Both the position numbers and the translations under genes were made by a program. From Patescibacteria group bacterium (lineage in GTDB: Bacteria > Patescibacteriota > Microgenomatia > Daviesbacterales > UBA10151): a DNA stretch of 47,215 nt. The stretch is from assembly GCA_023379125.1 (NCBI GenBank), contig JAMCSY010000027.1:69249-116463 (forward strand), given 5' to 3'. Position 1 is the first letter of the stretch, and each line of letters starts with the position of its first letter. This document shows, one piece after another, positions 963-47,215 of the stretch. The notes under the pieces were generated by a model. The model saw nothing but the letters and a program-made list of their open reading frames with translations. It did not search any database and was not told the DNA's origin.

Positions 963-2192
963 ATGGCCAAACAGGTTAAACAACATCCACTTACAGGTTT
1001 CCCAATAGATTTTTTGTGGGGAGCGGCTACTTCTGCTTTTCAGGTAGAGGGAAATAATATTCATGCTGACTTTTGGGACTGGGAACAAACAAATTTGCCA
1101 AATGAACAAAGATCAGGCCAGGCAATTGATCACTACCACCATTTTTCAGAAGACTTTGCCCTGGCTAAAAAATATCAACAAAATGCACACCGACTAAGCC
1201 TGGAATGGTCCAGAATTGAGCCTGCAGAGGGTGTTTTTGACTTACTAGAGATTGATCATTATCGTCAAGTGTTACAAGAGTTAAAAAAGCAAAATTTGGT
1301 AGTTTTTTTAACTTTGCATCATTTTACCAACCCTGAGTGGTTTACCAAAATGGGTGGTTGGAAATCTGCCAAAGCTACTTGGTTTTTTAACAGATTTGTC
1401 CAAAAAGTTGTGCCAGAATTTGCTCCTTGGGTAGATTATTGGATCACCATTAATGAGCCTGGGGTCTTACTATATCATTTGTACATCAATTCCAGATGGC
1501 CAGGTTCAGAAAAATCCTGGTTTAATTATCTCAAAACTTTTTACCATTTAGTTTGGGCCCACCGCCAAGCTTACCATTTTATCCAGCAAAGAGTTCCTCA
1601 AGCCCGAGTAGGTGTTGTTCATAACATCACTTGTTATTCTGTCACTCACCCACAAAACCCTTTAGAAAACTTAGTCAAATGGTGGAAATCCTTGACTGAA
1701 ACTCACCTATTTTATCTACTCAGCTACAAAACCCATGATTTCTTGGGCGTTAATTATTATTTTCACAACTATATCAATCTGGGTCAGGAAAAACCCGAAA
1801 GACATAATCTAACTAGATCAAATCAGTCTCAATTAGGCTGGGAAATTTATCCGCAAGGTTTATATCGTGTACTCAAAAGTCTCAAAAGATACCACTTACC
1901 TATTTTTATTACTGAAAACGGCCTAGCCACCAATGACGAGACACAACGAACTAAGTTCCTGACCGATCATCTCGCAGCCGTTTTACATGCTCTTAGGGAG
2001 CAAATTGTAGTCAAAGGTTATTTTTATTGGAGTTTACTAGACAATTTTGAGTGGACTGATGGTTGGCAGGCTAATTTTGGCTTAATTGGAGTCAACCGCA
2101 AAACTATGCACAGACTTCCCAAAAAAACTATAACAGTGTATGCTGAGATTATCAGAGCAAATCTTAGCTCAATATCAAAAAAGAAATCTTGA
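963..2192 (+). CDS. Glycoside hydrolase family 1 (beta-glucosidase-like)
   Basis: A retaining beta-glycosidase of family GH1, a TIM barrel that cleaves beta-linked glucosides or galactosides. The family signature FLWGAATSAFQVEG is at residues 17-30. The acid/base is E165 in TINEPG and the nucleophile is E318 in FITENGLA. The NFEWTDGW aglycone/glycone motif is near the C-terminus. At 409 residues it is slightly short for the family (440-480) but has all key motifs. There is no signal peptide, so it probably acts in the cytoplasm. The frame is open back to a TTG at 894; I prefer ATG 963 because GH1 homology starts just after it and an extended -10 lies 7 nt upstream. It heads a three-gene operon with a transporter and a second glycosidase, which suggests use of imported oligosaccharides. 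The true substrate cannot be read from sequence. Confidence 0.9.
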   Translation: MAKQVKQHPLTGFPIDFLWGAATSAFQVEGNNIHADFWDWEQTNLPNEQRSGQAIDHYHHFSEDFALAKKYQQNAHRLSLEWSRIEPAEGVFDLLEIDHYRQVLQELKKQNLVVFLTLHHFTNPEWFTKMGGWKSAKATWFFNRFVQKVVPEFAPWVDYWITINEPGVLLYHLYINSRWPGSEKSWFNYLKTFYHLVWAHRQAYHFIQQRVPQARVGVVHNITCYSVTHPQNPLENLVKWWKSLTETHLFYLLSYKTHDFLGVNYYFHNYINLGQEKPERHNLTRSNQSQLGWEIYPQGLYRVLKSLKRYHLPIFITENGLATNDETQRTKFLTDHLAAVLHALREQIVVKGYFYWSLLDNFEWTDGWQANFGLIGVNRKTMHRLPKKTITVYAEIIRANLSSISKKKS

Positions 2193-2216
2193 TATTTGAT
2201 TGCAGATTTAAAGTTT

Positions 2217-3119
2217 ATGTCCTACCTGCCAATATCCATTATCTCTTATGCCCTAAACGGTTTTTCTTTAATCGTAGACAAAACCTTACTTAACGAATCA
2301 TTGCCTAGTCCTTATGTTTATACTTTTTATATTGGGCTGCTGAGTGCTTTGGTAGTTTTCTTAATCCCTCTAGGAGCAACAATGCCCAACTTGCAAGGAG
2401 CGATCTTTGCAATTCTCTCAGGCATATTTTTTGCCTTGAGTTTAGTAACTTTTTTTACCAGCATGAGACACACTGTGGTGACTGTAGTTGGCCCAATTGT
2501 GGGTACTGTCAACCCTGTTTTTGCCTTAATTGTAGGCTCCTTGATTCTCAACCAAGAATTAGTAGCTCACCAGTGGGTGAGTTTTTTGTTGTTAATTACT
2601 GGGGGGATAATTTTGACTTTTAATCTTTGGTGGGGCAAACATTCTCTAGATAAAAACTTCTTGATCATGATCTTATCAGGTTGTTTTTTTGGTCTTTCTT
2701 ATGTCATGCTCAGGCAAGCTTTTTTATATGATTCTTTTTTGAATGTACTCATTGTTAGCAGATTAGCCCTCACTGCCATTGTACTTATTTTTCTCTTTTT
2801 CCCCCAAACCAGACATGATATTTTTGGCTCACAAATCACCCATAATCATTTTGCTAATAAAACTTCAGCCCTAGTTCTCTCTAGCCAGCTGGCTGGTGGA
2901 GTCTCTGGTTTAATGTTGGCCTGGGCAGTTTCCATGGCCAGTCCAGCTATTGTTAATTCCATTTATGGTGTCCAATACATTGTGCTTTTGGGTGGAGCAA
3001 TTATTCTTGCTAAATCTCATCCTCACTTCCTGGAAGAAAGATTTACCCCAATGGTCTTAGTCCAAAAAATCTTGGCAGTAATTATTATTTCTCTTGGCTT
3101 AGTCTATCTAGCAATTTAA
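2217..3119 (+). CDS. DMT-superfamily (EamA-like) permease
   Basis: An integral membrane protein of about 300 residues with ten hydrophobic segments in two similar halves, the usual EamA/DMT layout. The second half restarts near 'LSGCFFGLSYVMLRQAF'. It is expected to move a small metabolite across the cytoplasmic membrane; the substrate is unknown. The start could also be a TTG at 2196; ATG 2217 gives the normal short N-terminus before membrane segment 1. It follows the GH1 stop by 24 nt and precedes the second glycosidase by 7 nt, so the three genes are probably co-transcribed and the permease may carry a sugar or sugar conjugate. Confidence 0.8.
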   Translation: MSYLPISIISYALNGFSLIVDKTLLNESLPSPYVYTFYIGLLSALVVFLIPLGATMPNLQGAIFAILSGIFFALSLVTFFTSMRHTVVTVVGPIVGTVNPVFALIVGSLILNQELVAHQWVSFLLLITGGIILTFNLWWGKHSLDKNFLIMILSGCFFGLSYVMLRQAFLYDSFLNVLIVSRLALTAIVLIFLFFPQTRHDIFGSQITHNHFANKTSALVLSSQLAGGVSGLMLAWAVSMASPAIVNSIYGVQYIVLLGGAIILAKSHPHFLEERFTPMVLVQKILAVIIISLGLVYLAI

Positions 3120-3126
3120 TATTTTT

Positions 3127-4161
3127 ATGGGATTAATCTTAAAAATCATTGGTTTTGTCCTGGCAGGATTTATCTCTTTTATCTTGCTACTTTTTGCAGC
3201 GATGTGGGTTAGTGATGAATTTTTGCAGGTAACTCAACCTCAACCTCAAGTTGCCTATGGGGTAACTTTTTCCAATATTTATACCCAGGGTTTAGAGCTC
3301 AATCAAGATCAGGTTTATCAGGCAATTATTTCTGATTTAGGAGTCAAGCTAATTAGGCTCCCAGTTTATTGGAACATTATCCAAAACCAACCAGATAAAT
3401 TTGATTTTAGTGAGTATGATAAAATGCTGGACTTGGCTGCACAACATCACGTTAAAGTTATCCTGGCAATTGGTAAAAAGTTACCTCGCTGGCCAGAATG
3501 TTTTGTGCCTACTTGGGCAGCTACTCTACCGGCAAACAACCAACAAGCTGAGTTAAACAATGCTTTAATTCAAACAGTCCATCACTTTCAAAACAGGCCA
3601 GAAGTAGTTGCTTGGCAAGTGGAAAATGAACCCCTGTTTGATTTTGGTCAATGTTCCTCGATTGATCCTCAAGTATTAAGCTCGGAAGTCAGCTTAGTCA
3701 GATCTTTAGATCTAAGACCAATCTGGGTCACTGATTCTGGTGAGGTAGGCCTCTGGGTTAAACCAATGCAGCTGGGTGACTATATGGGAGCTTCTGTTTA
3801 TCGCGCTACTTGGAACCCCATTTTTGGTAATTTTCATTATCCTCTACCGCCTCTTTACTACACCTGGAAAGCAGCTTTGATCAAAATTTTATTTGCCCCT
3901 TCCTCCCGAGGTGTAATTATTTCTGAGTTACAAGCAGAACCCTGGACTCCAGGTACCTCCATCATTCAAACTCCCATCCAAACCCAGTTGAATGATTTTA
4001 GCTTGCAAACCTTTCAAGACAGTGTACATTATGCTGATCATACTTATTTAGGCACTGAGATCCTCTGGGGTGTGGAATGGTGGTATTACATGAAGGAACA
4101 TGGCCATCCAGAGTATTGGAATTATGCCAAAACTCTATTTAATGGTTCCACAAGTTTCTAA
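3127..4161 (+). CDS. Membrane-anchored clan GH-A glycoside hydrolase-like protein
   Basis: 344 residues with one N-terminal membrane segment (residues 5-27) and then a TIM-barrel hydrolase domain outside the membrane. The pattern 'LGVKLIRLPVYWNIIQ' (71-86) and a VENEP motif placing the acid/base at E168 are typical of clan GH-A (GH5/GH42-like). The nucleophile is probably E267 in ISELQAEPW. I cannot assign the GH family number. It is the last gene of the GH1/permease operon. A TTTAAT hexamer lies 6 nt before its ATG, so an internal promoter is possible. Together with the cytoplasmic GH1 enzyme it suggests outside trimming, import and inside hydrolysis of a glycan. Confidence 0.75.
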   Translation: MGLILKIIGFVLAGFISFILLLFAAMWVSDEFLQVTQPQPQVAYGVTFSNIYTQGLELNQDQVYQAIISDLGVKLIRLPVYWNIIQNQPDKFDFSEYDKMLDLAAQHHVKVILAIGKKLPRWPECFVPTWAATLPANNQQAELNNALIQTVHHFQNRPEVVAWQVENEPLFDFGQCSSIDPQVLSSEVSLVRSLDLRPIWVTDSGEVGLWVKPMQLGDYMGASVYRATWNPIFGNFHYPLPPLYYTWKAALIKILFAPSSRGVIISELQAEPWTPGTSIIQTPIQTQLNDFSLQTFQDSVHYADHTYLGTEILWGVEWWYYMKEHGHPEYWNYAKTLFNGSTSF

Positions 4162-11002: not shown

Positions 11003-11076
11003 GGAAAGGTGGTAATGGACAATTTGGCAAACAAGACTATTTAAGTAGTACTCGATATGTCCAAATTTGTCCAAGG
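11003..11076 (+). promoter_or_regulatory. Hairpin and micro-ORF in the rplA leader
   Basis: GGACAATTTGG (11017-11027) can pair with CCAAATTTGTCC (11061-11072) with one bulged base. The right arm ends directly before the AAGG ribosome-binding site (11073-11076) for rplA. A 9-codon ORF (ATG 11015, stop 11042-11044) preceded by GGAAAGGTGG lies in the left arm. Autogenous control by L1 is known in other bacteria; here it is an inference. Confidence 0.4.
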
Positions 11077-11079
11077 TAT

Positions 11080-11868
11080 ATGGGTAAAACAAAAACAGCA
11101 ATAATTGATGATTCTAAAGTAGTTGAGCCTGAAAAAAAGGCTCCAGTTACTGAAGCTAAAATTGATCAACCAGCTGGTAAAAAAGGCAAGACTAAGGCTA
11201 GTAAACAATCTTTGAAAAAAACTGGCACCAAAAAAATCATCAGAGGTAAACAGTACCAACAAAAAGTGGAGTTAATAGAAAAAGTGAAAAGATACCCTTT
11301 AGCTGAGGCTGTTAAATTAGCTCAGGAAATTTCTTTTACCAAATTTCCCGGCACAGTGGAAATTCATATCAACACTAATGCCAAAAACATCAGAGGTCTG
11401 GCAGCTCTGCCTTTTGCCACTGGTAAACAACTAACTATTTTAGCTTTTGGGACAGGTGCCAAAGACTCAGGAGCAGATCTCGTAGGCAGCGAGGAAACAA
11501 TCGAGGAAATTACCAAGGGCAAACTTAATTTTGATGTGATAGTCACTACTCCTGATTGGATGCCCAAGTTAGCTAAAGCAGCACGGATTTTAGGACCAAG
11601 GGGTTTAATGCCCAACCCTAAAAATGGCACTATTGGAGAAAATTTAAGCAAAATTGTGACTGACTTAAAGCAAGGTAAGATTGAATATAAAACTGAAAGC
11701 AACGGACAAGTTATTCATTTACGTATTGGCAAAACGAATCAGGCTGCTGAAGAGATCTCCGCAAATATCAAAGCGCTCTATAATACAATTGGCAAATCCA
11801 AAATCAAGAAAATCACTCTCTCTCCCACCATGGGACCAGGTGTCAAAGTAGAGCTGAATTCAATCTAA
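11080..11868 (+). CDS. rplA: 50S ribosomal protein L1 with basic N-terminal extension
   Basis: Binds 23S rRNA at the L1 stalk and in many bacteria represses its own mRNA. The core begins near residue 60 ('KQYQQKVELIEKVKRYPLAEAVKLAQ'). The family signature is visible at 'PDWMPKLAKAARILGPRGLMPNPKNGTIG'. The first 60 residues are Lys/Ala-rich and are not part of the normal L1 fold, making it 262 residues instead of about 230. Its stop overlaps the stop of the convergent gene by 4 bp. rplJ-rplL, usually next, are 4.4 kb away. Confidence 0.96.
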   Translation: MGKTKTAIIDDSKVVEPEKKAPVTEAKIDQPAGKKGKTKASKQSLKKTGTKKIIRGKQYQQKVELIEKVKRYPLAEAVKLAQEISFTKFPGTVEIHINTNAKNIRGLAALPFATGKQLTILAFGTGAKDSGADLVGSEETIEEITKGKLNFDVIVTTPDWMPKLAKAARILGPRGLMPNPKNGTIGENLSKIVTDLKQGKIEYKTESNGQVIHLRIGKTNQAAEEISANIKALYNTIGKSKIKKITLSPTMGPGVKVELNSI

Positions 11869-37477: not shown

Positions 37478-38323
37478 ATGAACTGCCTTAATCGTCTCAT
37501 CAAATACTTACTAGCCTTTTTGCTGTTTTTTAGTATTTACCTAATCCCGATATCGGTAATTGCTCAATCAAGCTCAATTGAGGTAACCTCAGTTTTTGAC
37601 TTAGCCGATAAAGAAGCTCAGAATGGCGATATTATTTCCAACATTGAAGGTGTGGGGTTAACTCGCACAACAGCAGCTTATGATCAAAGACTCTTTGGGA
37701 TTGTGCAAAATGATCCAGTAATTGTTTACCGGAGGTTGGATAACAGTGGCACACCCATCGCCCGCTCTGGTGTGGCAGAAGTTAACGTTACAACATTCAA
37801 CGGTGATATTCAGAGTGGAGATTACATTACCTCTTCAGAGATACCCGGTAAAGGTCAAAAAGCTGATGCTTCAGGATATGTTATCGGTGTAGCCCTGGAG
37901 TCGTTTACAAGCCAGGATGGTCAAGAATATGATTACCAGCCTATTTCTAATCCTAGCAAAATACAGAAATTAAAGACTGGTCAAATCCAGGTAGCTTTAA
38001 AAATAGAATATGCTGAGATTACCCGAACCAGATTCTTATCTGGCCTTCTCAATATTATCAACACTGCCCTATTCAAAAATTTAGAAGATCCTAATAAATT
38101 TGTTCAGCTTTTTAAATACACCTCAGCTGGATTGGTAATTTTGGTTAGTTTCATCATTGGCTTTTTATCATTCTCTCGTTCAATTCCCAAAAGTATTGAA
38201 GCAATTGGCCGGAATCCACTGGCTCAACGGGCAATTCACTTCTCAATTATTCTGAATATTGTCTTGACTATCATCACTGCTCTACTTGGTATTGGTGCTG
38301 CCTTACTGATCTTGAGGCTTTAA
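37478..38323 (+). CDS. Secreted fibre-type ectodomain fused to a c-subunit-like membrane hairpin
   Basis: 281 residues. A signal peptide or first anchor is at 8-29. The ectodomain (about 35-180) has 'YDQRLFGIVQNDPVIV' and 'NGDIQSGDYITSSEIPGKGQ', a pattern I know from the C-terminal domain of tail-fibre-like and beta-strand-repeat proteins. Two membrane segments (about 214-232 and 252-279) are joined by 'SIPKSIEAIGRNPLAQRAI', which matches the polar loop of ATP synthase subunit c (EAIARNPxA). TM2 reads 'ILNIVLTIITALLGIGAALL': where subunit c has the ion-binding Glu (LTEA), this has LTII, and no acidic residue is in either helix. It is the first gene of the F1 operon and has a good ribosome-binding site (AAGGGG). 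It probably cannot carry protons. No family name is known to me. Confidence 0.75.
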   Translation: MNCLNRLIKYLLAFLLFFSIYLIPISVIAQSSSIEVTSVFDLADKEAQNGDIISNIEGVGLTRTTAAYDQRLFGIVQNDPVIVYRRLDNSGTPIARSGVAEVNVTTFNGDIQSGDYITSSEIPGKGQKADASGYVIGVALESFTSQDGQEYDYQPISNPSKIQKLKTGQIQVALKIEYAEITRTRFLSGLLNIINTALFKNLEDPNKFVQLFKYTSAGLVILVSFIIGFLSFSRSIPKSIEAIGRNPLAQRAIHFSIILNIVLTIITALLGIGAALLILRL

Positions 38324-38422: not shown

Positions 38423-39127
38423 ATGCCCACTCTTAACCTTGAAAACATCATTCTATTGGCAATTTTGCTGCTCACCACAGCTTTGTATCTTTGGGAACAT
38501 CGTAAAAACCAAAAACTCTCCAAAATTCTCGAGCTCGAGCCAGAAGCGATCACCAAATCTACTGAGTCACAAAGTTATAAGATCATCCATGATGCTATTC
38601 GTAAAGCTCAGGCTATTCTTGGTAGTGCCGAGACAGAAAGTATCAAATTAGTGGCTGACAGCCGTACCACCAGTGAGAATCTGCAAAAAAAGTACGCAGA
38701 AGAGATAGAAAAATATAAAAACCAACTGCAAGCCTCTTTGCAGGAACAAGTTAGTGTCTCCCAATCAGAGTTTAATAAATTTCTTGATGATCTAAAGTCT
38801 CACAGCGAACAGTCACAAACACTTAATCAGCAAGTAACCGAGCAACGTACTCGCGAAATTTTTGAACTCTTTGAACAAAGACTAGCCACATTTTTAACCC
38901 AAACTGAACAGGAAAGTATCTCTGCCGTGGATTTGGAGATCAAAGCTGCTAGGCAGCTGATTGATACTTACAAATCACAGCAGCTAGCTTTAATTGATGA
39001 AAATATTATTGCTGTTTTGGAAAGAACCCTAGCTATTGTCCTTAACAAAAAACTACCATTAAAAGATCAAATGGATTTAGTCTTCGAAGCTTTAGAAAAA
39101 GCTAAGACAGAAAAGTTTGTTATTTAA
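38423..39127 (+). CDS. F-ATPase subunit b-like peripheral stalk protein
   Basis: 234 residues: one N-terminal membrane segment (4-22), then a long charged coiled coil ('LQKKYAEEIEKYKNQLQASL'), and a C-terminal segment 'VLNKKLPLKDQMDLVFEALE' like the end of subunit b. Subunit b links the membrane part to F1 through delta. It is longer than typical b (about 160). It lies 100 bp after the c-like gene and 3 bp before the delta-like gene. Identification depends on the operon context. Confidence 0.75.
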   Translation: MPTLNLENIILLAILLLTTALYLWEHRKNQKLSKILELEPEAITKSTESQSYKIIHDAIRKAQAILGSAETESIKLVADSRTTSENLQKKYAEEIEKYKNQLQASLQEQVSVSQSEFNKFLDDLKSHSEQSQTLNQQVTEQRTREIFELFEQRLATFLTQTEQESISAVDLEIKAARQLIDTYKSQQLALIDENIIAVLERTLAIVLNKKLPLKDQMDLVFEALEKAKTEKFVI

Positions 39128-39130
39128 TTT

Positions 39131-39616
39131 ATGTATCAAGATCAAATAAATATTTTTATCAGTACTGTTTATGGTAAATCTGAGGCTACCAGACAACTAG
39201 CTACTCTAAAAAGTTATCTGCTAAATAGATTATTTTCCAATGACCAAAGTATGCTCACCTCCCTAGAGCCAGAGCAAATTCGCTGGATGCAGAGTTTAGG
39301 AGAAGATTTCTACCAGGGAATTAATCAGACAAATGTTTATCAAATTCTCCAAGCAATCGAAGAACATTTAGCTCAACTGGAGCCACTGATCATCTACTTG
39401 CCTTTCGTCTTACCGGACGCCCAATTACCAAATCTAGGCAAATACGCACGAAACTTATTTGGTCCTGAGTGTTTAGTGGAAATCAAATTTGACCCTGACT
39501 TAATTGCTGGACCAGCTTTAGTCTGGAAAGGTGTATATAAAGATTACTCAATTAAACAAAAACTTGCTGATCATCATCAGGAAATCATGGATAGCCTCAA
39601 ACTAAAATTGAACTAA
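39131..39616 (+). CDS. F-ATPase subunit delta-like
   Basis: 161 residues, soluble. The C-terminal 'EIKFDPDLIAGPALVWKGVY' followed by 'KDYSIKQKLADHH' matches the OSCP/delta C-terminal pattern (vDpsLiGGivvrvGdkviDgSv). Delta joins the stalk to the top of F1. It is placed between b and alpha, the standard order. Confidence 0.75.
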   Translation: MYQDQINIFISTVYGKSEATRQLATLKSYLLNRLFSNDQSMLTSLEPEQIRWMQSLGEDFYQGINQTNVYQILQAIEEHLAQLEPLIIYLPFVLPDAQLPNLGKYARNLFGPECLVEIKFDPDLIAGPALVWKGVYKDYSIKQKLADHHQEIMDSLKLKLN

Positions 39617-39631
39617 ATTCGAAGATATCTT

Positions 39632-41149
39632 ATGGCTAATACAAGCACTTCTTCAGCATCCACAGCAGCAAATCAAAAGCCTACTGAAGTTGGTTTTGTC
39701 CGTTCAGTCAAAGATTTTTTGGTTTACCTTGATGGCTTACCAACCCTCCAGATTAACGATTTAGTGCAAAACGAGGCGGGGCTGCGTGGTTGGGTCACTG
39801 CCCTGCAAAAAGATAAAGTTGAGGTGCTGATGGTTGATGATGGTGAAGTAACTCCTGGGCAAATGTTCCAGCGTGGCCAAACCAATCTATCTGTACCTGT
39901 TGGTCCATTTTTACTAGGTCGGGCAGTTGATCCCTTAGCTGTCCCCATTGATGGCAAGGGCAAACTAGCTGTTACTGACACCACGACACTGGCCGAACTT
40001 GACCCCACTGCCAAAGGCATTTCTTTTCGTGAGTTTATTAATCACCAATTTGATACAGGTATTACTCTGGTCGATTCTTTAATCCCAGTTGGAAAAGGTC
40101 AAAGGGAGTTAGTTCTAGGAGATGCCCGTTCAGGTAAAACTAGCTTCTTAATCGATATTATTGTTAATCAAAAGTACACTAAAACTGTCTGCATCTATGC
40201 TCTCATTGGTAAACCCATTACTGAGGTTAGAAACATGATTGATATTCTCCACTCTAATAATGCCTTGGATCACACAATTGTGGTCGCTGCCTCTTCAACT
40301 GATCCTGCTCCCCTAATCTTTTTAACTCCCCAAACTGCCTTCTCTATTGCTGAATATTTTCAGAAGCAAGGCCAAGATGTCTTAATTATTCTGGATGATA
40401 TGGGTAATCATGCAAAAATCTATCGGGAGATTTCTCTACTGGCTAATGTAGCCCCAGGTAGAGAATCTTATCCTGGTGATATTTTTTATCAGCATGCTCA
40501 TCTTTTGGAAAGAGCTGGAAGTTTTAACCGTCAAGCAGGCGGGGGTTCGATTACCGCTTTGCCAGTTATTGAACTGAACTTAAACGATTTCACCACTCTA
40601 ATTCCTACTAATGTCATGGCCATGACTGATGGACATTTATTATTCAAGTCTGCTCTTTATAGCCAAGGGCAAAGACCAGCTATTGACCTTTCTCTGTCCG
40701 TTTCCCGGGTAGGACAACAAACTCAAACCCATACCCAAAATCTGCTAGCAACCAAGGTCAAGCAAGTTTTAGCTGAAGCCACCCAGCTAGAAACAGTCAG
40801 TAGGTTTAGCTTTGAGTTACCTTTTGAAACACAGCTATTGCTCAGACAAAAAATCTTGATTGAAGAAATGATTAAGCAAGAACCTTTGATATATATTTCT
40901 AAAGAGATTCAATCAATCCTACTTGCTCTACCTTTTACAGGCATGTTTCAAGACAAAGATGCTGAGTTTGTGCGCCAAAACTTACGTAAAATTATTGAAA
41001 GTTTTGCTAGTGATCCACAGCTTCTCAATACCACCAGGGCAGTGCCTGAGATGAAAGATGATAACCAGTTAATCGCCCTGCTAGAAAAAGCTACATCCAG
41101 ACTGGAATATTTACTAGGACTAACCAAAAAAGGAGCGCAAAAAGCCTAA
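39632..41149 (+). CDS. atpA: F1-ATPase subunit alpha, divergent
   Basis: 505 residues. Recognisable: 'GRAVDPLAVPIDGKG', the P-loop GDARSGKT at 163-170, 'IYALIGKP' in place of the usual 'IYVAIGQK', and the arginine-finger motif SVSRVG with R359. The P-loop differs from the nearly constant alpha sequence GDRQTGKT: the Gln that contacts Mg-nucleotide is replaced. The N-terminal Ser/Thr-rich stretch is short. Normal length. It supplies the non-catalytic nucleotide sites and the catalytic arginine finger. Confidence 0.92.
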   Translation: MANTSTSSASTAANQKPTEVGFVRSVKDFLVYLDGLPTLQINDLVQNEAGLRGWVTALQKDKVEVLMVDDGEVTPGQMFQRGQTNLSVPVGPFLLGRAVDPLAVPIDGKGKLAVTDTTTLAELDPTAKGISFREFINHQFDTGITLVDSLIPVGKGQRELVLGDARSGKTSFLIDIIVNQKYTKTVCIYALIGKPITEVRNMIDILHSNNALDHTIVVAASSTDPAPLIFLTPQTAFSIAEYFQKQGQDVLIILDDMGNHAKIYREISLLANVAPGRESYPGDIFYQHAHLLERAGSFNRQAGGGSITALPVIELNLNDFTTLIPTNVMAMTDGHLLFKSALYSQGQRPAIDLSLSVSRVGQQTQTHTQNLLATKVKQVLAEATQLETVSRFSFELPFETQLLLRQKILIEEMIKQEPLIYISKEIQSILLALPFTGMFQDKDAEFVRQNLRKIIESFASDPQLLNTTRAVPEMKDDNQLIALLEKATSRLEYLLGLTKKGAQKA

Positions 41150-41154
41150 AACAT

Positions 41155-43396
<2,242 letters not shown>

Positions 43397-43452: not shown

Positions 43453-43737
43453 ATGAGTGTATTAAAAGTCAAAATAGTAACCCCTAAAGCAACTATTTTC
43501 CAAGGAGACGCAGACTCTGTTTCTTCAACTAACAGTTCTGGCAAGTTTGATATATTACCAGAACACGCTAACTTTGTAACTTTAATCAACAATCACCCCA
43601 TTACCCTTTGTTTAGCTAACCAGCAGACCAAAAGTTTTACTTTCCCTCTAGCAATTATTTATACTCATAATAATCAAATAGATATCTACACGGATATTAC
43701 TCTACAGTTAGAGAACATCTCCAACACTACTCACTAA
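43453..43737 (+). CDS. atpC: F1-ATPase subunit epsilon, N-terminal domain only
   Basis: 94 residues: 'LKVKIVTPKATIFQGDADSV' and 'GKFDILPEHANFVTLINNHP' are the epsilon beta-sandwich. The C-terminal helical pair that blocks ATP hydrolysis in normal epsilon (about 130-140 residues) is missing. Last gene of the operon, 56 bp after beta. The lack of the inhibitory arm would favour a constantly active ATPase. Confidence 0.85.
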   Translation: MSVLKVKIVTPKATIFQGDADSVSSTNSSGKFDILPEHANFVTLINNHPITLCLANQQTKSFTFPLAIIYTHNNQIDIYTDITLQLENISNTTH

Positions 43738-44017: not shown

Positions 44018-47000
44018 ATGAAGAGTGATCGTCTGCAAAAAGCCAAACTCGCTGAATATTTACAAACTCGGGTGAATCCGACCAAATCTGTTGCTGCTAA
44101 GCTATCCTCTGGCTCACCTTTATTAAAAATTGGAGAGGCAGCTAAAGTACTTGGAGTTTCCATTGATACCTTACGTCGCTGGGAAGAAGTAGGCAAAATC
44201 AAATCAATTAGGACAGCCGGTGGTACTAGGCTATACTCAATAGAATTACTTCAACAAGTCGCTGGCAAAAAACGCTCTTACAGGAGGGTTGAGCAAGCTG
44301 ATAAACTTCAAGCCAAATTACAAAGCAAAGATACAGTACAATTGCCTCCTAGCCAACTCCTTCCTACTCCAGCCGGTGAAGACGATTCAATTATCTCCCA
44401 GCTGCCCAATAAAGAGCTTGCTAATTTGATAACACCAGGCATTTCCAACGAGGTTGAACAAATCATTCAATCTCAACAAGCTCATTCTTTATATGAATCT
44501 CCTCTAACTCAACAACCAGAAATTGATACTAATGAGAGCATTATTGCTATACCCGAAGATAAACCCGAAACTACCCTAGAAGCAGACAAAATTAGCAAAA
44601 ATAAACTTCATATTTTAAATATAAAACATAGAAATCTAGGTAATTTAGCCTCGGTTAGAGAAAAAATCTATGCAGGGGCTACTCTACTGTTTGTTAGTTT
44701 TACATTATTAATAAGTGCCCTCGCTTTTACAAAAATCACTGGCAGTGTCTTGCCTTTTGCCTTACCCACCCCTTTAAAACAGCTAGCAGCAAACTTACAA
44801 TTGGATTCTCAACCAATCTCTTTGGCAGGTGTTAACCCAAATAACTTCTCACAGAATTTGGCAACTATTCCTAACTTAAATAGCGGGAAGGTTCTAGCTG
44901 GCACTACTGTTGCCCATTATTTAGAAATCAACTCGGACACAGCTATTAATGGCAGCCTGGCAGTTTCGACCGATGGTGTTTTTGGTAACTCAGTTACCGC
45001 TCCAAATATTATATATGGTGTCCGAGCTGGAGCTAATGTTGCTGTTTCTGCTGGACAAACTCCAACTATTTCAGTTAATTTACCAGCCCTCGTTAACTCT
45101 TTCCAAGGCTCAACAGGTGCCATCAATTTAGCTGCTGGTACTGATATTGCTATTTCTGGCTTAACTATTTCTGATACTGCAACCCTTTCTTCCGTGCGCG
45201 GTAGAGGTGGCTGTGACTCATGTATCGTTGATGATGATGTCAGTAATACTTTAACCTTAGATTCCTCCAGTTCAGTGTCTGGTTCAGCAATTAAGTCTGG
45301 GACTGTAGCTAGCAGCTATGGTGGAACAGGTATCACATCATATACAAAAGGTGACATTATATATAGCTCTGCTACAAGTACTCTGGCTACATTAGGCATT
45401 GGTACTTCTGGTCAGGTTTTGCAAGTCTCCAGTTCCGGAGTTCCTTCCTGGGCTAACGCTACAGGCACCTTGAGCGGTGGTGGGAATAATGGTTATGTTG
45501 CTTATTGGACCGGGGCTACTTCTCTTTCATCTGAACAATATTTGTCTACATCAAGAGGTGGCACTGGGCTAGATGGCTCAGCTGCCAGCAATGGGCAACT
45601 GCTGATTGGCAACGGCACAGGTTATTCTTTGGCTACCCTAACCCCAGGAACCGGAGTTACTGTCACTAATGGAGCAGGTACCATCAGTCTGGCCGCCAGT
45701 CTGCTAAATGCAGTTGACGGGATTGGAACTACTGCTTCATATTCTGGTTTGGAGTTTGCCGGGGGGTCAAGCGATCAGTTAAGCCTGCTACAAGGTTGCT
45801 CAGACGGAGAGCTATTGAAATGGGACAACACCAGTAAAGCTTGGGTCTGTTCAACTGATTTAGGTGGTTCAACTGCCATAATTAATGTCGCCGAAGGTGC
45901 AACTACTTATAGTGGTATTGATACTCTGCGTTTTAGTGCCAATGATTTTAATGTCTCTAAAACAACTTCTACTGCTGATGTTTCAATAGATTATACGAAT
46001 GGCCAATTGGCAACATCAGGGCAAAATGGTTTCTTGTCTGCTGCTGATTGGACCACCTTTAACTCCAGACAAGCAGGTGATGCTGACCTGACAGCATTGG
46101 CTGGACTTGGTTCCACAGGTATTGCAGTGAGAACTGGCTCAAATACCTGGTCTCAAAGAATGATCACTGGGACTACCAATCAAGTGATTGTCACCAATGG
46201 TGATGGAGTCTCTGGCAACCCGACTCTTTCTCTACCCCAAGATATTGCTTTAACTTCCTCTCCTACCTTTAGTGCTTTAGCTTTAACAGCTACTTCTAAC
46301 CAACTGCTTTTGGGAACTACCAATATTGGGACTTTAACCTGGACTCCTTCTACTACTCAAACTATTACTCTACCTGATGCTACAGGTACTGTAGCTTTAG
46401 GAACAGGGACTTCTGGACAGATTACTGGATGGACTGGGACTTCCTCCTTAGGAATATTAACTGATCTACCAACAGCTACTACCATTGGTTCTAGTTATAT
46501 CTACAGAGTGGGAGGAACTGATGTGGCTGTTACTGATGGTGGAACTGGGAAGAGTTCCTGGACACAGTATTCCATACCATATCTTACTGATACATCTACC
46601 TTTGGAGAAATAGCTATTGGGACTTCTGGGACAGTGCTCGTTTCTTCAGGTACAGGTTATACTTGGAGTACAATTTCTGGAGTAGGTGCTGTAACAGGTA
46701 CTGGTACTTCGAACTATGTGACCAGATGGACTGGTTCTTCTTCTTTGGCCACTGGTGTTCTGTATGATAATGGGGCTTATGTAGGTATAGGCACTACTAA
46801 TCCCGGATCACTACTGACTGTGGGTAATAATACCTTTACTGTTAACTCTTCTGGGAATATCTTAGGTAATACTTTAGCTTTAACAGCTTCCTCCAATCAA
46901 ATAGTCCTAGATACTAATGGGACTTTAACCTGGACTCCTTCTACTACTCAAACTATTACTCTGCCTGATGCTACAGGTACTGTAGCTTTAGGAACAGGGA

Positions 47001-47215
47001 CTTCTGGAGGACTGGCTGCCTGGAATGGAACTAACTCCTTAACCAATCTTACCTCTTTAGATGTGAGTAGAGGTGGAACTGGACACACTTCCTGGACACA
47101 ATATGGTCTGCTGTATGCTGATACTACTTCTTCCCTTTCTCAGGTAGGAATAGGAACTACCGGACAGTTACTAGCTACTACTGGGACAGGTTATTCTTGG
47201 ATAGATAATAACTTC
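44018..47215 (+). CDS. Giant beta-strand-repeat surface protein with N-terminal MerR-type HTH (partial)
   Basis: 1066 codons are visible and the frame is open at the window end. Residues 35-80 are a MerR-like HTH: 'LLKIGEAAKVLGVSIDTLRR' then 'WEEVGKIKSIRTAGGTRLYS'. A polar linker (about 85-210) follows, then one membrane segment ('IYAGATLLFVSFTLLISALA', about 223-243), and then a very long Gly/Thr/Ser-rich ectodomain. The ectodomain repeats phage tail-fibre-like units such as 'YGGTGITSYTKGDIIYSSAT' and 'GIGTSGQVLQVSSSGVPSW'. A 90-bp DNA segment (46328-46417) recurs at 46919-47008 with one change. The DNA-binding end would be in the cytoplasm and the fibre outside. Start ATG 44018 has no strong ribosome-binding site. 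It lies 280 bp after the ATPase operon. Confidence 0.85.
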   Translation, partial: MKSDRLQKAKLAEYLQTRVNPTKSVAAKLSSGSPLLKIGEAAKVLGVSIDTLRRWEEVGKIKSIRTAGGTRLYSIELLQQVAGKKRSYRRVEQADKLQAKLQSKDTVQLPPSQLLPTPAGEDDSIISQLPNKELANLITPGISNEVEQIIQSQQAHSLYESPLTQQPEIDTNESIIAIPEDKPETTLEADKISKNKLHILNIKHRNLGNLASVREKIYAGATLLFVSFTLLISALAFTKITGSVLPFALPTPLKQLAANLQLDSQPISLAGVNPNNFSQNLATIPNLNSGKVLAGTTVAHYLEINSDTAINGSLAVSTDGVFGNSVTAPNIIYGVRAGANVAVSAGQTPTISVNLPALVNSFQGSTGAINLAAGTDIAISGLTISDTATLSSVRGRGGCDSCIVDDDVSNTLTLDSSSSVSGSAIKSGTVASSYGGTGITSYTKGDIIYSSATSTLATLGIGTSGQVLQVSSSGVPSWANATGTLSGGGNNGYVAYWTGATSLSSEQYLSTSRGGTGLDGSAASNGQLLIGNGTGYSLATLTPGTGVTVTNGAGTISLAASLLNAVDGIGTTASYSGLEFAGGSSDQLSLLQGCSDGELLKWDNTSKAWVCSTDLGGSTAIINVAEGATTYSGIDTLRFSANDFNVSKTTSTADVSIDYTNGQLATSGQNGFLSAADWTTFNSRQAGDADLTALAGLGSTGIAVRTGSNTWSQRMITGTTNQVIVTNGDGVSGNPTLSLPQDIALTSSPTFSALALTATSNQLLLGTTNIGTLTWTPSTTQTITLPDATGTVALGTGTSGQITGWTGTSSLGILTDLPTATTIGSSYIYRVGGTDVAVTDGGTGKSSWTQYSIPYLTDTSTFGEIAIGTSGTVLVSSGTGYTWSTISGVGAVTGTGTSNYVTRWTGSSSLATGVLYDNGAYVGIGTTNPGSLLTVGNNTFTVNSSGNILGNTLALTASSNQIVLDTNGTLTWTPSTTQTITLPDATGTVALGTGTSGGLAAWNGTNSLTNLTSLDVSRGGTGHTSWTQYGLLYADTTSSLSQVGIGTTGQLLATTGTGYSWIDNNF
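46328..47008 (+). repeat. Near-identical 90-bp repeats in the fibre gene
   Basis: 46328-46417 and 46919-47008 differ at one base (CTACCTGATG / CTGCCTGATG); both encode GTLTWTPSTTQTITLPDATG and onward. The identity at third positions shows a recent copy or gene conversion. Confidence 0.85.

What the first reader, a model, noticed from the sequence alone, without database searches (positions are those of the whole stretch)
37478..38323. Fusion of a tail-fibre-type ectodomain to a c-subunit-like transmembrane hairpin
The ectodomain pattern (YDQRLFGIV, NGDIQSGDYITSSEIPGKG) is the type found at the ends of fibre and beta-strand-repeat proteins, while the C-terminal hairpin carries the subunit c loop EAIGRNPLA. 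If it forms a ring like subunit c, each ring would display about ten fibre-type domains on the outside, turned by F1 from inside. I know of no described protein with this layout.
Basis: partly seen in the sequence, partly recalled or inferred. Interest (0 to 1): 0.85.

Follow-up and report, generated by a model that had tools for sequence, protein, structure and literature searches.

The report
F1 motor carrying surface-displayed c-like rotor
Many ultra-small Patescibacteria carry a second ATP-synthase-like motor in which the proton-carrying ring subunit has lost its proton site and is fused to a fibre- or adhesin-type domain outside the cell, so the motor may turn or move surface structures instead of making ATP.

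Summary
ORF 37478-38323 encodes a signal peptide, a phage-fibre-type beta domain and a C-terminal hairpin. It is the first gene of X-b-delta-alpha-gamma-beta-epsilon, the atp operon order without subunit a and with X in the place of subunit c. A confident AlphaFold model (pLDDT 93) superposes the hairpin on ATP-synthase c subunits (75 residues, 1.2 A) and the ectodomain on phi29 gp12/gp8.5 domains. The c polar loop (EAIGRNP) matches canonical c of sister genomes, but the ion-binding carboxylate is absent in every aligned member. The family occurs across Patescibacteria, beside its own divergent F1 with intact catalytic residues; most close relatives also keep a normal F1Fo elsewhere, while this genome shows none. 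In other lineages the same carboxylate-less hairpin carries Ig/invasin-like or NHL-propeller ectodomains (up to 2,589 aa). Two thirds of X operons adjoin fibre-type proteins, against 1 of 20 canonical operons. Best reading: an ion-uncoupled, ATP-driven rotor displaying surface modules, probably for adhesion or movement. Shown: fusion, homology, synteny, loss of the ion site. Inferred: ring, rotation, function. No description found in the papers searched; Mycoplasma F1-like systems are the nearest analogues.

The parts
37478..38323 (+). gene X: fibre-type ectodomain fused to a subunit-c-like hairpin (281 aa)
37478..37564 (+). signal peptide, residues 1-29, likely SPase I site before Q30 (-1 A in 59/75, +1 Q in 54/75 homologues)
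37574..38017 (+). beta ectodomain, residues 33-180; fold of phi29 gp12 C-terminal fragment / gp8.5 head-fibre base; homologous to a domain in giant fibre proteins
38030..38083 (+). helix 185-202 linking ectodomain to hairpin
38090..38320 (+). subunit-c-like transmembrane hairpin, residues 205-281; no D/E in TM2 of any of 75 members; R245+20 is I in the window
38198..38224 (+). polar loop EAIGRNPLA, residues 241-249; same motif as canonical subunit c of sister genomes (EAIGRNPDA/EA)
38423..39127 (+). subunit b-like stator: N-terminal TM, coiled coil, b-like C-terminus
39131..39616 (+). subunit delta/OSCP-like (AlphaFold pLDDT 96.3; Foldseek hits are delta/OSCP chains)
39632..41149 (+). F1 alpha (divergent), arginine finger kept
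41155..42009 (+). F1 gamma
41993..43396 (+). F1 beta (divergent), catalytic residues kept
43453..43737 (+). F1 epsilon, beta-sandwich domain only; C-terminal helical domain absent
44018..47215 (+). giant fibre protein: MerR HTH, one TM, fibre repeats; cut by the contig end; probable partner

Best explanation
This is a second, ion-uncoupled F1 ATPase of Patescibacteria. SHOWN by sequence or predicted structure: X is exported by a signal peptide; its outside domain has the fold of phage head-fibre-base/gp12 domains; its two-helix hairpin is a derived subunit c whose loop keeps the c motif but whose ion-binding carboxylate is lost; X sits where atpE sits in the operon; b, delta, alpha, gamma, beta and a shortened epsilon are kept; subunit a is absent from the operon. 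INFERRED: X hairpins form a c-type ring whose conserved GRNP loop docks on gamma and epsilon; alpha3beta3 hydrolyses ATP, held by b and delta; the torque goes into the ring and so into the ectodomains outside, or into something they hold. The likely output is mechanical work on surface fibres or adhesins (attachment, retraction or gliding), with the neighbouring giant membrane-anchored fibre protein as the probable partner. In other lineages Ig/invasin-like or NHL-propeller ectodomains are carried by the same kind of hairpin, which suggests a general display rotor with exchangeable heads.
For: Synteny: X directly upstream of b in 74/78 loci, and in 34/35 loci not selected for the loop motif; full X-b-d-A-G-B in 63/78 and 31/35. 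Hairpin = c: hhalign E=1.2e-10; X-hairpin HMM finds canonical c in 13 canonical loci at E 1e-10 to 3e-6; a canonical-c profile hits only X in the own genome; X profile hits only c subunits in the PDB at E<=0.1; 75 of 75 residues at 1.2 A on 6ynw_H. Ion site lost: 0/75 D/E in TM2; 0/35 at R+20 against E in 18/18 canonical c; no PF00119 or PF00137 in the own genome. Motor kept: beta catalytic residues 60/60, alpha arginine finger 73/73; separate clade from canonical F1 (0.998/0.968). Ectodomain = phi29 gp12 C-terminal fragment Z 12.5, gp8.5 base Z 9.4. Other heads: Ig/invasin-like with a PF00137 domain over Pfam's cut-off (L244, L245, L258-L260), NHL propellers (L243, L256, L257), none with a TM2 carboxylate, all beside b/d genes of an F1 operon. 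Fibre-type neighbour in 51/77 X loci against 1/20 canonical loci, p=9e-7.
Against: No oligomer was modelled, so ring and stoichiometry are unproven. With the loop masked, X-versus-c similarity is not significant (E=0.07), so for X itself the sequence link rests on loop plus context, with fold and synteny in support. TM1 of X has lost the GxGxGxG packing motif (G/A/S 0.34 against 0.50 in canonical c). The phage relatives of the ectodomain are trimeric (own knowledge), which may set another symmetry. There is no subunit a to hold rotor against stator, and no known receiver of torque. The fibre neighbour is missing at a third of loci, partly through short contigs. Function is inferred by analogy only; the organisms are uncultured.
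Confidence: 0.62

Rival explanations
1. Static anchor: the X hairpins form a membrane platform that docks F1, but nothing rotates outside. F1 ATP hydrolysis drives conformational change or signalling, for example through the membrane-spanning MerR fibre protein, and the ectodomain is an adhesin or assembly platform.
For: Ectodomain relatives are static phage decoration or base domains. Many adjacent giants have a cytosolic DNA-binding type domain (MerR, or integrase SAM-like in Gottesmanbacteria) plus one TM and an outer fibre, which looks like a sensor.
Against: Gamma, the epsilon beta-sandwich, b and delta, the parts needed for rotary coupling, are all kept, and the c loop that faces F1 is the most conserved part of X.
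Confidence: 0.2
2. Assembly motor or chaperone: the ectodomain resembles the C-terminal domain released by autocleavage in phage spikes, and the motor helps fold, trimerise or push out the giant fibre.
For: Fold match to gp12 3gqh/3suc; homologous domain near the C-terminus of the giants; adjacency of giants.
Against: Elsewhere Ig-like or NHL heads replace this domain, so the fibre-type domain is not essential to the machine; autocleavage was not tested.
Confidence: 0.1
3. Ordinary ion-translocating F1Fo ATP synthase with a decorated c subunit, using a distant subunit a or another ion-binding residue.
For: Operon order is that of atp operons; most close relatives have a subunit a elsewhere in the genome.
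Against: No carboxylate in TM2 of any of 75 members; no subunit a detectable in the own genome or beside X; several genomes keep X without a detectable PF00119 gene (G000, G015, G023, G044, G046).
Confidence: 0.04
4. Chance or convergent two-helix membrane anchor with no kinship to subunit c.
For: TM1 and TM2 alone are not significantly similar to c when the loop is masked.
Against: Loop identity to sister-genome c, operon position of atpE, fold match, and Ig-headed relatives that pass Pfam's own PF00137 cut-off.
Confidence: 0.04

Closest known systems
Bacterial F1Fo ATP synthase (atp operon, subunit c / PF00137)
   Same: alpha, beta, gamma, epsilon, delta and b kept; c-like hairpin with the polar loop; operon order b-delta-alpha-gamma-beta-epsilon
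   Different: subunit a missing, c carboxylate lost, c fused to an exported ectodomain, epsilon shortened, alpha/beta in a separate clade
Mycoplasma mobile G1-ATPase (type 2 F1-like, gliding motor; PMC11864180)
   Same: an extra F1-like ATPase beside the normal F1Fo, no ion-conducting Fo described, proposed to drive surface adhesin movement; cluster encodes a 2-TM protein of unknown role
   Different: dimeric chained motor with its own Gli proteins and a 12-TM protein; no c-like loop or c-fused ectodomain reported in the passages read; here b and delta are kept
Mycoplasma type 3 'F1-like X0' ATPase with MIB-MIP (PMC12994834)
   Same: atypical F1 with non-Fo membrane proteins needed for a surface protein system
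   Different: X0 is a 12-TM and a 2-TM protein with no known homologues; no homologue of b; no display fusion on c described
Phage phi29 gp12 C-terminal fragment (3gqh/3suc) and head fibre gp8.5 base (6qyy)
   Same: fold of the ectodomain
   Different: soluble phage structural proteins, not membrane-anchored by a c-type hairpin
N-ATPase (alternate F1F0, TIGR033xx)
   Same: a second F-type ATPase operon in the same genome
   Different: here alpha and beta are far below the N-ATPase model cut-offs; N-ATPases keep an ion-pumping Fo (own knowledge)

Membership tests
F1Fo ATP synthase | catalytic alpha3beta3gamma with P-loop, catalytic Glu and arginine finger | tested here: met
   beta K, E, R and E in 60/60; alpha arginine in 73/73; window beta over the TIGR01039 cut-off, 478.1 against 462.85
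F1Fo ATP synthase | peripheral stalk b and delta | tested here: met
   b alignment with N-terminal TM and b-like C-terminus; delta model matches OSCP/delta chains
F1Fo ATP synthase | subunit a (PF00119) | tested here: not met
   none in the own genome at E<=10; none in the operon
F1Fo ATP synthase | c ring with ion-binding carboxylate | tested here: not met
   0/75 D/E in TM2; canonical c has Glu in 18/18
Subunit c (PF00137) | two-helix hairpin fold | tested here: met
   residues 205-281 on c subunits, Z about 10, rmsd 1.2-2.0
Subunit c (PF00137) | conserved cytoplasmic polar loop R-Q/N-P | tested here: met
   GRNP invariant in the 29-sequence alignment A1, whose members were not selected by the loop; same loop in canonical sister c
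Subunit c (PF00137) | Pfam gathering score | tested here: not met
   P0001 has no Pfam match; Ig-headed relatives L244, L245, L258, L259 and L260 pass it
Subunit c (PF00137) | oligomeric ring | not testable with these tools
   only monomers can be predicted
Mycoplasma type 2/3 F1-like ATPases | NCBIfam cut-offs for alpha/beta | tested here: not met
   NF045863 353.6 against 600; NF045936 266.5 against 520; NF045858 373.9 against 850; NF045934 384.8 against 570
Mycoplasma type 2/3 F1-like ATPases | 12-TM X0-type protein in the cluster | tested here: not met
   no conserved multi-TM protein in the X operons surveyed
phi29 gp12/gp8.5-type domain | fold | tested here: met
   3gqh Z 12.5, 6qyy Z 9.4; BFVD matches to 6.5e-10
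phi29 gp12/gp8.5-type domain | trimer and autocleavage | not testable with these tools
   needs biochemistry or a multimer model

The most novel reading that the evidence does not exclude
A new class of rotary machine: F1 turns a proton-dead c ring whose subunits carry exchangeable extracellular heads (phage-fibre base, Ig/invasin, NHL propeller), an ATP-driven rotating surface display used by host-dependent Patescibacteria to engage, reel in or crawl over other cells.
Probability: 0.4. Interest if true: 0.97.

Novelty: new variant of a known kind. Interest (0 to 1): 0.88.

Why it matters
If right, rotary ATPases have a third kind of output besides ion transport and ATP synthesis: torque delivered through the membrane to extracellular domains. 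It would give Patescibacteria, whose motility and attachment machinery is poorly known, a candidate mechanical device conserved across much of the phylum, and a parallel to the Mycoplasma gliding motor whose membrane coupling is unknown (PMC11864180). It would also correct annotation, since these F1 genes can be read as evidence for ion-coupled ATP synthesis in genomes where no ion-coupled Fo can be found.

Tried and rejected
Pfam and NCBIfam on P0001 alone gave only a weak 'subunit C' match (E=0.012); the kinship came from alignments and structure. Idea that upstream genes were a type IV pilus operon: the ~800-aa divergent neighbour reads as leucyl-tRNA synthetase, and other neighbours look like housekeeping genes; dropped. 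Hit of the ectodomain to phrog_673 'head scaffolding' explained by the decoration/base fold. Single 82-89 aa hairpins in G222 and G214 lie beside a 4-TM protein in an ordinary-looking atp cluster, so were set aside as canonical c. Promoter and terminator scans no better than shuffles. Rfam found only two tRNAs. Literature searches for a Patescibacteria F1-like system found none. The loop pattern used for the genome-contig scan biases those 80 loci towards GRNPLA, so loop conservation is quoted from loci found without it. The VIA list is filled mostly by c subunits and phage domains; absence of other folds there means nothing.

Full report
OBSERVATION. The ORF 37478-38323 (+) is 281 aa and holds every motif quoted. 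It is followed by 38423-39127 (b-like), 39131-39616 (delta-like), 39632-41149 (alpha), 41155-42009 (gamma), 41993-43396 (beta), 43453-43737 (epsilon) and 44018-47215 (giant protein, cut by the contig end). The window lies in a 0.97 Mb genome, 97% complete; its closest named relatives in the genome-contig scan are Candidatus Daviesbacteria (Patescibacteria).

NOT A ONE-OFF. In 57 related genomes 42 have some match to X; most same-family genomes have a full-length homologue, the rest only a matching domain in giant proteins. A scan of GTDB species genomes found 145 loci, 80 kept, in Daviesbacteria, Gottesman-, Levy-, Roizman-, Woese-, Curtiss- and Amesbacteria, WWE3 and a few Parcubacteria. X is directly upstream of b in 74 of 78 loci and, among loci not selected by the loop motif, in 34 of 35. 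In an even draw of 381 genomes of the phylum, by my count of the printed rows, at least 58 have a hairpin in an ORF of 240-360 aa and 8 in a larger ORF; the 75-95 aa ORFs are canonical-size c.

SECOND F1. Most close relatives also have a normal F1Fo with subunit a, usually on another contig. The window genome shows no PF00119 or PF00137 at E<=10, and a profile of Daviesbacteria canonical c finds only the X hairpin; with 97% completeness a missing contig cannot be fully excluded. Alpha and beta of X operons form their own clade (support 0.998 and 0.968; 33% and 42% identity to canonical sister genes; E. coli the only outside reference), with catalytic residues kept. Epsilon lacks its C-terminal helices. 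Delta is confirmed by a pLDDT 96 model matching OSCP/delta chains.

HAIRPIN. AlphaFold2 on 75 homologues: pLDDT 93.4, helices 205-245 and 247-280. VIA-align: c subunits at Z about 10, e.g. 6ynw_H, 75 residues, 1.2 A; note that Z near 10 is not by itself decisive for helical pairs. Profile comparison with sister canonical c: E=1.2e-10; reversed or block-shuffled controls no better than 0.03; with the loop masked 0.07, so the sequence signal is carried by the loop and its context. The reverse test, the X-hairpin HMM against 20 canonical loci, finds canonical c in 13 of them. Canonical sister c reads KAMEAIGRNPDAQAKILPAMLLGMAFAEAIAIY. X keeps EAIGRNP but has no D/E anywhere in TM2 in 75 members, and at R+20 has I, V, L, A, G or T in 35 unselected members. 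TM1 is less rich in small residues than canonical c. Positive residues cluster by the loop and a signal peptide precedes the ectodomain, giving the c topology: loop inside, both ends outside.

ECTODOMAIN. It matches phi29 gp12 C-terminal fragment (Z 12.5), gp8.5 base and capsid decoration proteins and many phage appendage proteins in BFVD. The same domain lies towards the C-terminal part of several giant proteins with MerR-HTH, one TM and fibre repeats. One complete giant, of 4,397 aa, also has a LamG-like domain.

OTHER HEADS. A hairpin with the same loop and no TM2 carboxylate sits at the C-terminus of 660-820 aa proteins with Ig/invasin-like domains (L244, L245, L258, L259, L260; these pass the PF00137 cut-off and keep a glycine-rich TM1) and of NHL-propeller proteins of about 500 aa (L256, L257) and 2,589 aa (L243), each next to b and/or d genes, with alpha, gamma and beta where the contig or fetched stretch reaches. 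This is the strongest sign that the hairpin is the machine part and the ectodomain the payload.

NEIGHBOURS. A fibre-type protein (most with one TM near the N-terminus) lies within 3 ORFs of 51/77 X operons but of only 1/20 canonical operons in relatives (p=9e-7). Its cytosolic end is MerR-type in many loci, or a phage-integrase SAM-like domain with collagen repeats in Gottesmanbacteria. In Woesebacteria a 2,3-BPG-independent phosphoglycerate mutase gene is inserted between X and b; in M. mobile the gliding motor contains phosphoglycerate kinase (PMC11864180).

MECHANISM. Rotary parts kept, ion path lost, export signal and surface head gained: the simplest reading is that ATP hydrolysis turns an X ring and the work is used outside. 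Ring, stoichiometry, rotation and purpose are inferred. The nearest known systems are the Mycoplasma type 2 and type 3 F1-like ATPases, in which an F1 has been recruited to a surface system (PMC11864180, PMC12994834), but alpha and beta fall well below those families' cut-offs, and neither is described with a subunit-c display fusion in the passages read.

VERDICT. Observation confirmed; interpretation structurally supported and extended, function unproven. I rate it a new variant of a known kind (rotary ATPase), interest 0.88.

Noticed in passing
window 44018-47215: Giant protein with cytosolic MerR HTH, one TM and an outer fibre: a membrane-tethered DNA-binding-type domain joined to a surface fibre; similar giants adjoin many X operons.
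   Followed up: partly
L160:9865-11262, L161:16756-20789, L162:16542-20306, L163:17792-20612: In Gottesmanbacteria-type loci the giant has phage-integrase SAM-like domains instead of MerR, then TM and collagen-like repeats.
   Followed up: partly
L243:10432-18201; L244:1076-3082; L245:9205-11199; L256:8658-10151; L257:5975-7498; L258:6858-8900; L259:5999-8461; L260:6695-8716: Carboxylate-less c hairpins fused to NHL-propeller or Ig/invasin-like ectodomains beside F1 operon genes.
   Followed up: yes
L170:6028-7761, L179:10694-12433 (also L178, L185, L211): Phosphoglycerate mutase gene inserted between X and b in Woesebacteria, a glycolytic enzyme in the motor operon.
   Followed up: partly
L253:2320-3072 and 11039-11830: Two X-type genes flank one F1 operon, possible mixed rings.
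   Followed up: no
whole genome G000: No canonical subunit a or c found; this genome may lack a proton-coupled ATP synthase.
   Followed up: yes
L243:3138-10364 and 1134-3133: Beside the 2,589-aa NHL-c fusion lie a 2,408-aa secreted protein and what looks like an ABC transporter pair inserted before b.
   Followed up: no
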